Assembly: GCA_905221605.1 (NCBI GenBank)
Contig: CAJNDS010002124.1
Coordinates: forward strand, 658,921-722,920
Reading direction: 5' to 3'
Length of the DNA: 64,000 nt
From: Symbiodinium natans
Lineage: Eukaryota > Sar > Dinophyceae > Suessiales > Symbiodiniaceae
Within the stretch, counting starts at the first letter, position 1, and every line of letters begins with the position of its first letter. The notes beneath the pieces are model-generated. The model was not told the origin of the DNA and searched no databases. It worked only from the letters and a program-made list of their open reading frames with translations. Shown piece by piece: positions 23,875-32,662 of the stretch. The position numbers were made by a program, and so were the translations under genes.

Positions 23875-24153
23875 TACGGGGGGACAACCAAGGAAGGAAA
23901 TCAACTCCCCTAATCGCCCTGAACTTATATTTCCCAGATCGAACCAAGAAACAACCAAGAACACGGATAAGAGCAACAAGGAAGGGGCACCCTTACACAA
24001 GTAGAGGGGCACTAACCCAACCCTCACTCCCAAACACGGACTTTTTTCTTTGGACGGGCTGGCCATCCTTGAGCCAAACATAGTTTACGGGTTCATTAAC
24101 CCTTTCAACTTCCAACACTAACTCCTTTCTACAATACCAATTGCAGCTCCGCA
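23875..24153 (-). repeat. 3' LTR of the retroelement
   Basis: 279-bp partner of the LTR at 32384-32662. On its outer side the host sequence is again a TTTAGGG array (about 23850-23874). Identity of the pair implies recent insertion or gene conversion. Confidence 0.9.
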
Positions 24154-24161
24154 CTCCCCCT
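24154..24161 (-). promoter_or_regulatory. Polypurine tract
   Basis: Immediately upstream of the 3' LTR the minus strand reads GGACAGGGGGAG, ending in the purine run AGGGGGAG. Position and composition are those of a plus-strand primer of LTR elements. Confidence 0.65.
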
Positions 24162-24523
24162 GTCCTAGGATTTCCTAGGACACATTGGAGATGCAGGTCT
24201 TTTGGCCAAAAACTGCCATTAAGGCAGCAGCCAGCTGCTTGAAATGCAAGTTGTGGTTTAACGTCTTCCAGGACGGAATTATAGCACATTGGCTAACCTA
24301 CTACCCATAGAGAATCTTTTTTCACCATGATCCTCTCATCACTGAAGACTCCTTGGCCTTCTTCACCACAAACCGTGGTCTTCGCTACGCGAAAAGCTAC
24401 TTACTTCTACTATCAGGGATTTCCATACCCTTAATAGTAACCACCACATTGTCAGCACATTGGCTGTTCCAGCGCACCCGTCTCCAGAAAGAGAAAAACT
24501 ATCCCTTCATCCATACCATCCAA
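24162..24523 (-). other. Element 3' untranslated segment
   Basis: About 360 bp between the last coding codon and the polypurine tract. No telomere repeats, no open frame of note and no pol remnant were recognised. Confidence 0.5.
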
Positions 24524-24774
24524 TCACTTCTTTTTCCGATTGTTGGCAATCTTGAGGTGAAGTTGCAGCAGAATATACTCCAGGTCCGAAACTGTAAGAA
24601 CAGGATCCTGTACGCCCCTTTGAATTGAGGATACCAATCCTTCCCTCTTTGCGTCCTCAATCGCCTGGCAAGATTGACCCAGCTCTTCATTCGCAGTGGC
24701 AGACCCTGGTGCATCCGCATCAGATGGACGATCCTTTTCTTCAGGATCTTGAACCATTACCACCTCTTCTTTTT
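24524..24774 (-). pseudogene. Frame-shifted C-terminal continuation of ORF3
   Basis: Past an A6 run (minus strand of 24772-24777) the +1 frame is open for about 80 codons to a stop at 24524. It has the same acidic/helical style as the element proteins (EEVVMVQDPEEKDRPSDADA, SDLEYILLQLHLKIANN). Either a single-base insertion, an assembly error or +1 recoding separates it from ORF3. Confidence 0.5.
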
Positions 24775-31800: not shown

Positions 31801-32316
31801 AGCAGGTGCAGCTTCAAAGCTGTCCGCACCCTTCTGTTCATGACCGCTTCCACCACCTTGGGGACTCGAAGATGGACCCCTTTTGATCTTGTTCAGAGGC
31901 CTCCGGGCCGCTTGCAGCACTTCTCCAATCAGATCGGTCTGAGACTCTTGGTCTACCATTCGACCCGAAGTCGAAGACGACGGCTGATACCCGTGTTTGT
32001 GCAACACTCGTAAAGCAGTCACCTCCATTTCACGATCTATACCACCAGTCGCGTCCCAGTTCCTTTTCTCACCAGGCTTTGGCGATACAGAAACAGCACG
32101 TCCTTCAGCTTCAGCATTGCTAACCATATCCCTATTGGGATTCATACCCACATTGGGGCTTTCTGCAACCAAGGCCTCTTCCAGATGTTCTTCAGCGCCG
32201 GGAATCACCTCTTCCAACACCGATCTTTCACCCAGAGACTCAGCTGCACCATTTCCAGCTCCACCATCTTGTCCACCATCCGAGGCAAGTTGGAGCCATC
32301 GCTTCGGAGAAGGCAT
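28765..32316 (-). CDS. Element ORF1: WW, S1-like, MLLE and three CCCH zinc fingers
   Basis: The first ATG is at 32316. The frame is open from 32349, where a GTG follows a TAA. Numbered from 32349 the product is 1,194 residues. Domains: WW at about 230-260 (WEWHLHEDGRQYYY then SKWTLP), a long acidic low-complexity region, an S1/OB-like RNA-binding segment at about 675-740 (GDEIMGLVRCINGYGAF, then GDTVNGTVKLVEDDGTIIL), an MLLE (PABC-type) domain at about 808-866 (GKITGMLLGRPMEDL, the poly(A)-binding-protein signature), and CCCH fingers at about 982-1001, 1074-1094 and 1128-1148 (C-x7-C-x5-C-x3-H, the last C-x7-C-x6-C-x3-H). WW, S1, MLLE and CCCH modules belong to mRNA-binding and translation factors. 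A role as a gag-like ribonucleoprotein is inferred. The frame ends in a G9 run overlapping ORF2. Confidence 0.8.
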   Translation of the reverse strand: MPSPKRWLQLASDGGQDGGAGNGAAESLGERSVLEEVIPGAEEHLEEALVAESPNVGMNPNRDMVSNAEAEGRAVSVSPKPGEKRNWDATGGIDREMEVTALRVLHKHGYQPSSSTSGRMVDQESQTDLIGEVLQAARRPLNKIKRGPSSSPQGGGSGHEQKGADSFEAAPAAGYAMGEEEILQMEAERLRQLSEEEDEMRQVSERDGFQKDEHLIKACDGTTWEWHLHEDGRQYYYCLDTQESKWTLPVVGEKMKSDEVVGSPSGNELEMEAALDSSSSTPKTESTRAFQGSVNSLGEKDFSSTIRDSGPRAGGDAPTSGSPDEEEIPGNRTDIAGAQHLDREGMGALSEGVAAVESVGPEEKIPNVEIGTVSAAEDRVVDVVPVVRECGPGDLEDGGKRSCVATEEVSSFGAKVPAIQREKEASGIAGDTEDLKNEAWSANDARVDAPDITWSAKEARVEVHMALRSTGDCNNGAQVSAAADDGGSQVDALVQPEVSSEERNDKGYTGANEAAVVNDGGNSPLEAMEPKDPAVEESMPAVDDRLNCPAVEEDLPAAEGVTKDSNDGSTPMKGEVLPSGSSPEVDTERITADEAKPLAEKKRGPEVQEHKKDELVGLVEQDEQCDSKVKTKDAPGADDTEVVSEEQAKKVPRAGALESPGTHCYQEGDEIMGLVRCINGYGAFLDHGDLNVLIPTEGNNTCHFRFGDTVNGTVKLVEDDGTIILDTFLVLEEDVEDSSSTLRKWKPSGWSTWWTNPWYVGQWYRDSNGQWDWKQEEEHSDEELVIQELSSEEREERQLYGEKIYKALLENGNEEEAYVGKITGMLLGRPMEDLQECVADQAFLNAEARRAYGILQNGGWKPDGTESTGLGELTTFSRKQYHNALFELACKKRRFSRPVVGEAVATVLNQGEDEFWNALWLDTKLFLQELDGAVQSMSKRENKPMEAYMDPDQYKKAYMTPKTVLSPGYSKLCKFFNRGRCRNGDECSYEHRRYGEGWPGGGSTDPKNSQEADDEEGNIGDPPTEEGTVDEAQQEREDLAFRAKYNFGKGASKGEPTSGEPKGRLCLYYNQGGCKYGTACRYLHNDDIALEGTWEPGKSWDNASRKSLRDAGFHNCCFDYYLRERCRKGLNFCKYSHDEMSEERLSLLKHLVQVANQVRFEKERGWEITDRSTFQPPASGGGS

Positions 32317-32370
32317 TGCTTCTTGATCCCAAAAACCTTGAAAGAACACTTAACCGCAGGGAACCTAATT

Positions 32371-32383
32371 TGGGCTCATAACC
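32371..32383 (-). promoter_or_regulatory. Primer binding site, half-tRNA initiator-Met type
   Basis: Directly after the 5' LTR the minus strand reads GGTTATGAGCCCA. Its complement TGGGCTCATAACC is the anticodon stem-loop of an initiator methionine tRNA (CAT anticodon flanked by GGG and CC). Copia of Drosophila and yeast Ty5 prime from such an internal tRNA-iMet fragment rather than from the tRNA 3' end. Confidence 0.7.
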
Positions 32384-32662
32384 TACGGGGGGACAACCAA
32401 GGAAGGAAATCAACTCCCCTAATCGCCCTGAACTTATATTTCCCAGATCGAACCAAGAAACAACCAAGAACACGGATAAGAGCAACAAGGAAGGGGCACC
32501 CTTACACAAGTAGAGGGGCACTAACCCAACCCTCACTCCCAAACACGGACTTTTTTCTTTGGACGGGCTGGCCATCCTTGAGCCAAACATAGTTTACGGG
32601 TTCATTAACCCTTTCAACTTCCAACACTAACTCCTTTCTACAATACCAATTGCAGCTCCGCA
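32384..32662 (-). repeat. 5' LTR of the retroelement
   Basis: 279 bp, starting TGCGGAGCTGC and ending CCCCCCGTA on the minus strand. No difference from the copy at 23875-24153 was found when the two were compared by eye. Just outside, the host sequence is TAGGGTTTAGGG. Confidence 0.9.

What the first reader, a model, noticed from the sequence alone, without database searches (positions are those of the whole stretch)
23875..32662. LTR element with no pol that carries a set of translation/mRNA-binding domains
LTRs, primer site and polypurine tract are intact, yet the 8.2-kb interior shows no protease, integrase, reverse transcriptase or RNase H. It encodes WW, S1-like, MLLE (PABC-type), SAM-like and six CCCH modules. 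MLLE domains bind PAM2 peptides on translation and deadenylation factors. An element that packages MLLE and CCCH fingers could dock on poly(A)-linked mRNPs, or bias translation of its own RNA, while borrowing pol in trans. I do not know of a described element with this combination.
Basis: partly seen in the sequence, partly recalled or inferred. Interest (0 to 1): 0.88.

Follow-up and report, generated by a model that had tools for sequence, protein, structure and literature searches.

The report
Pol-less retrotransposon targeting telomere-type repeats
A mobile DNA element that lacks the usual copying enzymes carries instead one very long RNA-binding-type protein, and nearly all sampled copies sit at one fixed position inside telomere-type repeats, which is unusual for this class of element.

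Summary
Window 23875-32662 is a complete LTR element read on the minus strand: identical 279-nt LTRs, a tRNA-Met-type primer site, a polypurine tract and a 5-bp target duplication. Pfam finds no protease, integrase, RT or RNase H. MLLE and six CCCH motifs are solid; S1 is supported by fold; WW is sub-threshold; SAM is unsupported.

The three ORFs are pieces of one frame. Of 14 complete copies examined, 6 keep a frame over 2500 codons, and protein relatives reach 2609 aa without pol. Among the six, dN/dS is 0.20-0.33 in 13 of 15 pairs, so the protein appears to be under selection.

Of 136 host-side junctions matched genome-wide, 100 were listed; in 91 the element sits exactly at TAGGG or CCCTA, the same place in the (TTTAGGG)n unit. 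All 14 complete copies have 5-bp duplications. The LTR-end/primer-site pattern occurs 772 times.

Best reading: a family with its own selected RNP protein and a telomere-repeat-specific integration route, borrowing pol. The pol donor was sought in a small part of the RT loci and not found.

The parts
23870..23874 (.). target-site duplication TAGGG, one copy, at the end of a TTTAGGG array
   Evidence: with one duplication removed the flanks form an unbroken TTTAGGG array
23875..24153 (-). 3' LTR (279 nt, sense TGCGG...CCGTA)
24154..24163 (-). polypurine tract ACAGGGGGAG
24524..24970 (-). frame that holds the C-terminal piece of the polyprotein
25519..25760 (-). second CCCH triplet (approximate bounds, my arithmetic from the protein)
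28906..29400 (-). first CCCH triplet (approximate bounds, my arithmetic from the protein)
29737..29946 (-). MLLE (PABC-type) domain
30067..30330 (-). S1-like domain
31567..31653 (-). WW-like stretch, sub-threshold
32372..32383 (-). primer-binding site GGTTATGAGCCC, complementary to a tRNA-Met anticodon arm (tRNA identity recalled)
32384..32662 (-). 5' LTR
32663..32667 (.). target-site duplication TAGGG, other copy

Best explanation
It is a young copy of a high-copy, pol-less LTR retrotransposon family. Shown: the element carries all cis signals (LTRs, half-tRNA-type primer site, polypurine tract, 5-bp duplication) and one ~2600-codon polyprotein with MLLE, S1-like and six CCCH domains, whose changes between copies are mostly synonymous per site; sampled insertions fall at one position of the TTTAGGG unit, in both orientations. 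Inferred: reverse transcriptase and integrase come in trans from a Copia-type element; the polyprotein takes the part of Gag, binding the element's own RNA through CCCH/S1 and linking it through MLLE to PAM2-bearing translation or mRNP factors; it works mainly on the RNA that encodes it (cis preference), which is why its frame is kept; and the register-specific integration is set either by the donor integrase or by the polyprotein.
For: Cis signals and 5-bp duplications in 14 of 14 complete copies, LTR pairs without a difference in 13 of 14. No pol in the window copy, in three full-length relatives, or in the Pfam labels of the 9 relatives found among candidates of 1435-4566 aa. Six of 14 copies have one frame over 2500 codons; among these six dN/dS is 0.20-0.33 in 13 of 15 pairs and 0.58 and 0.66 in two low-count pairs (pairs are not independent). 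All 15 frame-changing indels and both nonsense changes among the 14 copies are private, while 36 of 167 substitutions are shared. Targeting: 16 of 16 five-prime host junctions of the first sample are TAGGG, CCCTA or one-base variants; of 136 junctions matched genome-wide 100 were listed and 91 of these are exact, against 0.030 per base for these 5-mers in the window outside the element. MLLE columns G812, E813, G831-G835 and L838 are invariant in all 13 aligned sequences, the window's included. Copia RTs abound in this genome: 2237 RVT_2 candidates, 150 scored, all over the cut-off, 0 of 14 control genomes ring.
Against: No pol donor was found. The comparison was narrow: of the 772 primer-site places 100 are listed, on contigs up to C336, and of 2237 RT candidates 150 are scored; seven contigs hold both and the nearest pair is 22.7 kb apart (by eye). 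Short pieces at the 3' side of ten RT elements and one 5' side share nothing visible, but most pieces may not reach the element's end. No Gag-type capsid fold was shown: the model of the 843-aa piece is useless (mean pLDDT 29.9), so an unrecognised enzyme there is not excluded. The private disabling changes could partly be assembly errors, which would be private too, so the cis-preference argument is weak (about 0.016 by the sharing rate, my arithmetic). The copies used for dN/dS were chosen for being open, and two of the six still carry a disabling change. Three of the 100 listed junctions do not fit (one telomeric in another register, two not telomeric). Nothing here tests MLLE-PAM2 or RNA binding.
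Confidence: 0.6

Rival explanations
1. Captured host gene: an mRNA for a PABC/CCCH protein was picked up between LTRs and is a passenger with no role in transposition.
For: MLLE, S1, CCCH and WW are ordinary host RNA-metabolism domains (recalled; matches); no Gag domain was recognised.
Against: Low dN/dS between very young copies; full-length relatives that differ at 9-18% of aligned residues keep the whole frame; 40 and 24 protein clusters, overlapping sets, were found in two searches.
Confidence: 0.15
2. Gag-only element of a known type (like TR-GAG): the polyprotein is a diverged Gag of a specific autonomous Copia family that has the same Gag plus pol.
For: Position right after the primer site and the whole-interior frame fit Gag.
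Against: No protein with this sequence plus pol among candidates of 1435-4566 aa; 771 of 772 primer-site junctions carry the same next base A, so a donor with this LTR end and a leader that differs there is at most rare; no CCHC knuckle in three full-length relatives.
Confidence: 0.17
3. Autonomous element with unrecognised replication enzymes in the unresolved 843-aa and 532-aa pieces.
For: These pieces have no recognised fold apart from CCCH.
Against: Pfam RT, integrase and RNase H models do not hit at E up to 10 (HMMER's filters drop most matches above about 0.1); a deeper fold test could not be made.
Confidence: 0.05

Closest known systems
Ty1/copia LTR retrotransposons
   Same: LTRs, primer site complementary to an internal (anticodon-arm) part of tRNA-Met (recalled for copia and Ty5), 5-bp duplication
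   Different: no pol; LTR ends TG...TA; giant polyprotein with MLLE and CCCH
TR-GAG and other non-autonomous LTR elements (LARD, TRIM)
   Same: cis signals and no pol, mobilised in trans (recalled)
   Different: TR-GAG keeps a recognisable Gag, LARD and TRIM are non-coding or short (recalled; only search listings seen)
TRAS and SART of the silkworm
   Same: insertion into telomeric repeats (TRAS into (TTAGG)n in a PMC6338049 passage; silkworm telomere-specific elements in PMC4700185 passages)
   Different: those are non-LTR elements with their own endonuclease and RT (endonuclease recalled)
Yeast Ty5
   Same: LTR element with telomere-linked targeting
   Different: targets silent chromatin through integrase and Sir4, not a DNA sequence (PMC4700185, passages seen)
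Retrotransposons carrying DNA methyltransferases in Symbiodinium and Klebsormidium
   Same: host-type accessory domain in algal retroelements, Ka/Ks below 0.2 reported for the Klebsormidium one (PMC5890265, passages seen)
   Different: those keep RT; the accessory domain is an enzyme

Membership tests
LTR retrotransposon | two direct LTRs, primer site, polypurine tract, target duplication | tested here: met
   14 of 14 complete copies
Ty1/copia superfamily | pol in the order PR-IN-RT-RH | tested here: not met
   no pol domain
Ty1/copia superfamily | 5-bp target duplication | tested here: met
   14 of 14; shared with other superfamilies (recalled)
Ty1/copia superfamily | primer site matching an internal tRNA-Met segment | tested here: inconclusive
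   sequence GGTTATGAGCCC present; the tRNA match is recalled, the host's tRNA was not searched
LARD | long non-coding interior | tested here: not met
   one frame over 2500 codons in 6 of 14 copies
TR-GAG | Gag homologous to that of an autonomous element | tested here: inconclusive
   no such relative found, but most RT loci were not examined
TRAS/SART-like telomeric-repeat element | insertion at a fixed place of the telomeric repeat | tested here: met
   91 of 100 listed junctions exact
TRAS/SART-like telomeric-repeat element | non-LTR structure with endonuclease and RT | tested here: not met
   LTRs present, no RT
MLLE (PABC) domain | Pfam score above the curated cut-off and MLLE fold | tested here: met
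WW domain | Pfam score above the curated cut-off | tested here: not met
   18.7 against 26.9 bits, E 0.0018
S1 domain | S1 fold | tested here: met
SAM domain | Pfam hit or fold | tested here: inconclusive
   no Pfam hit; not folded

The most novel reading that the evidence does not exclude
A two-part LTR retrotransposon: one element supplies only pol, this one supplies only a selected RNP polyprotein whose CCCH/S1 modules recognise its RNA and also steer the integration complex to a fixed place in TTTAGGG repeats, while MLLE ties it to the translation machinery. An LTR element with sequence-register-specific integration into telomeric repeats, guided by an RNA-binding protein rather than by the integrase alone.
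Probability: 0.2. Interest if true: 0.93.

Novelty: new variant of a known kind. Interest (0 to 1): 0.82.

Why it matters
Sequence-specific integration is known mainly from non-LTR elements; [quoted passage not shown] An LTR family that repeatedly hits one position of the telomere unit gives a natural system for studying targeted integration, with a safe-harbour logic in a genome rich in interstitial telomeric arrays. A pol-less element whose 2600-residue protein still shows purifying selection makes the question of cis preference in non-autonomous elements testable.

Tried and rejected
Third homology search for a fusion of this protein with pol: none among candidates of 1435-4566 aa. Structure of the 843-aa piece: mean pLDDT 29.9, not used. 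PAM2, PPxY and similar motif patterns in three full-length relatives: none, so I see no MLLE ligand in the polyprotein itself. Dinoflagellate spliced leader in the window: none, so the host group is not settled. IMG/VR scan with ORF1: none. Rfam (gathering scores) and tRNA scans of the window: none. Pol donor: short pieces at the 3' side of ten RT elements (L044-L052, L054) and one 5' side (L053) were fetched. Nine of them (L044-L052) have no blastn match to this element; L053 and L054 were only scanned for telomere runs and for the primer-site motif, which both lack. One piece is partly N (L048), and several may not reach the element's end. One RT element (C502) lies near telomeric repeats, but the 146-nt stretch its two sides share ends about 20 nt before them. 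Pattern CA+GGTTATGAGCCC gave 161 places, control 2; in the three loci fetched the match lies inside a long frame in L055, L056 and once in L057, and the other L057 match lies in a second copy of that ~1-kb repeat, so I did not take them for primer sites; the remaining places were not examined. A chance origin of the telomeric junctions was rejected. Literature: judging by titles and starts of abstracts, no paper on an LTR element with MLLE or on an LTR element inserted at a fixed place in telomeric repeats was listed; the library holds open-licence papers only, and the one paper on heat-activated Copia elements of Symbiodinium that I looked up was not held.

Full report
Setting. The window lies at G000:C1812:658921-722920 of an unnamed 759-Mb assembly in 2543 contigs. 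The host is not identified. Perfect 10-mers of the TTTAGGG repeat cover 16% of the window (19% outside the element), and the genome holds very many Copia reverse transcriptases. TTTAGGG telomeres and Copia abundance are reported for dinoflagellates (PMC11453091 and PMC5890265, passages seen), but the window lacks a spliced leader, so this is only a suggestion.

The element. Window 23875-32662 is a complete LTR element on the minus strand. The LTRs are identical over 279 nt. Directly after the 5' LTR comes GGTTATGAGCCC and directly before the 3' LTR ACAGGGGGAG. I recall the first as the complement of a tRNA-Met anticodon arm, the half-tRNA priming known from copia and Ty5; no host tRNA was examined. 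The flanks carry TAGGG twice, and with one copy removed they form an unbroken TTTAGGG array.

One polyprotein, no pol. The window copy is interrupted by two frame-changing indels and one in-frame stop. The 14 complete copies examined are all the LTR pairs in the 40 places listed (the window and 13 fetched); the other 12 places had no partner in that list. Of the 14, 6 have a frame over 2500 codons, and 4 show neither a frame-changing indel nor a nonsense codon. Pfam lists no protease, integrase, RT or RNase H in the window pieces or in three full-length relatives. The 40, 24 and 9 relatives found in three overlapping protein searches carry no such Pfam label; the last search admitted candidates up to 4566 aa.

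Selection. In 15 pairs among the six open copies, dN/dS is 0.20-0.33 in 13 and 0.58 and 0.66 in two pairs with few changes. One of the two most divergent pairs has 37.5 synonymous changes over 1746 sites and 25.5 nonsynonymous over 5967, where equal rates would give about 128 (my arithmetic). The pairs share history and are not independent. The copies were chosen because they are open, and two of the six carry a disabling change, but their substitutions are not thereby forced to be synonymous. Among three full-length protein relatives, 239-440 residues differ while the frame stays open; neutral change would give 0.055-0.064 stops per missense change, so 13 or more, though such proteins are listed only if open. 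All 15 frame-changing indels and 2 nonsense changes among the 14 copies are private, against 36 shared of 167 substitutions; at that sharing rate the chance of seeing none of 17 shared is about 0.016. Assembly errors weaken this point.

Target. In the first sample of 30 LTR loci the 16 five-prime junctions are TAGGG 7, CCCTA 7, ACCTA 1 and CAGGG 1; telomere-type coverage falls from 76% in the first 20 nt of host flank to 13% beyond 500 nt. All 14 complete copies have matching 5-bp duplications. This sample comes from the top-scoring 40 of 1356 candidates and so from the youngest copies. A wider pattern search for host-side junctions found 136 places (control 0) and listed 100. It skips flanks with C at -12, which removes most CCCTAAACCCTA junctions, so the orientation ratio is not meaningful. 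Of the 100, 91 are exact TAGGG or CCCTA (88 within a full TTTAGGG or AACCCTA), six are one-base variants, one is telomeric in another register, and two are not telomeric at the junction. They need not all be independent: two pairs share the same unusual flank. The two 5-mers occur at 0.030 per base in the window outside the element. TAGGG and CCCTA are the same double-stranded site, so the element enters in either orientation at one place in the 7-bp unit. Survival bias among random insertions could favour telomeric arrays but not one register, so I take the specificity to belong to integration.

Copy number. The LTR-end plus primer-site pattern occurs 772 times, its reversed control 0 times. 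Only 1 of the 772 has a next base other than A.

Pol donor. The own genome gives 2237 RVT_2 candidates, 150 scored. By eye I compared the 100 listed primer-site places (contigs up to C336) with the 150 RT places: seven contigs hold both, and the nearest pair is 22.7 kb apart. Short pieces beside ten RT elements (ten 3' sides and one 5' side) showed no primer site and, for the nine compared by blastn, no match to this element. This covers a small part of the RT loci, so the donor may still be there.

Mechanism. Shown: cis signals, one polyprotein without recognised pol and with low dN/dS, register-specific telomeric insertion, recent activity. Inferred: pol in trans, Gag-like RNP role, MLLE link to PAM2 proteins, cis preference. 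Open: whether the integrase or the polyprotein sets the target. Yeast Ty5 reaches telomeric chromatin through integrase and Sir4 rather than a DNA sequence (PMC4700185, passages); the silkworm elements TRAS and SART enter telomeric repeats but are non-LTR. The nine paper searches made here listed, by title and start of abstract, no LTR element with this combination.

Noticed in passing
window 1-64000: Short TTTAGGG/CCCTAAA arrays are scattered through the window, 16% of all bases.
   Followed up: partly
window 20251-20327, 34609-34685, 45215-45316: A 77-nt repeat occurs twice at 99% identity, and a 49-nt tandem repeat at 45215 looks by eye like its reverse complement.
   Followed up: no
window 6833-7196, 37881-37952, 42641-42719: Long AGT repeat (364 nt), a C run (72 nt) and a G run (79 nt).
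   Followed up: no
L045-L047, L051: Four Copia-type elements of this genome show a further open frame of about 170-400 aa after the RNase H end of pol.
   Followed up: no
P0012, P0017, P0043, P0045 against P0016, P0025 and the window: The family has two unlike N-terminal ends (MATNWL... and MPSPKRW-type) joined to the same rest, as if subfamilies had recombined.
   Followed up: no
L033, L036: Two copies have variant duplications (ACCTA, CAGGG) in degenerate telomeric repeats, so the target seems to tolerate one mismatch.
   Followed up: partly
L048: Part of one Copia flank reads as X on translation, so it is N in the source, withheld or masked.
   Followed up: no
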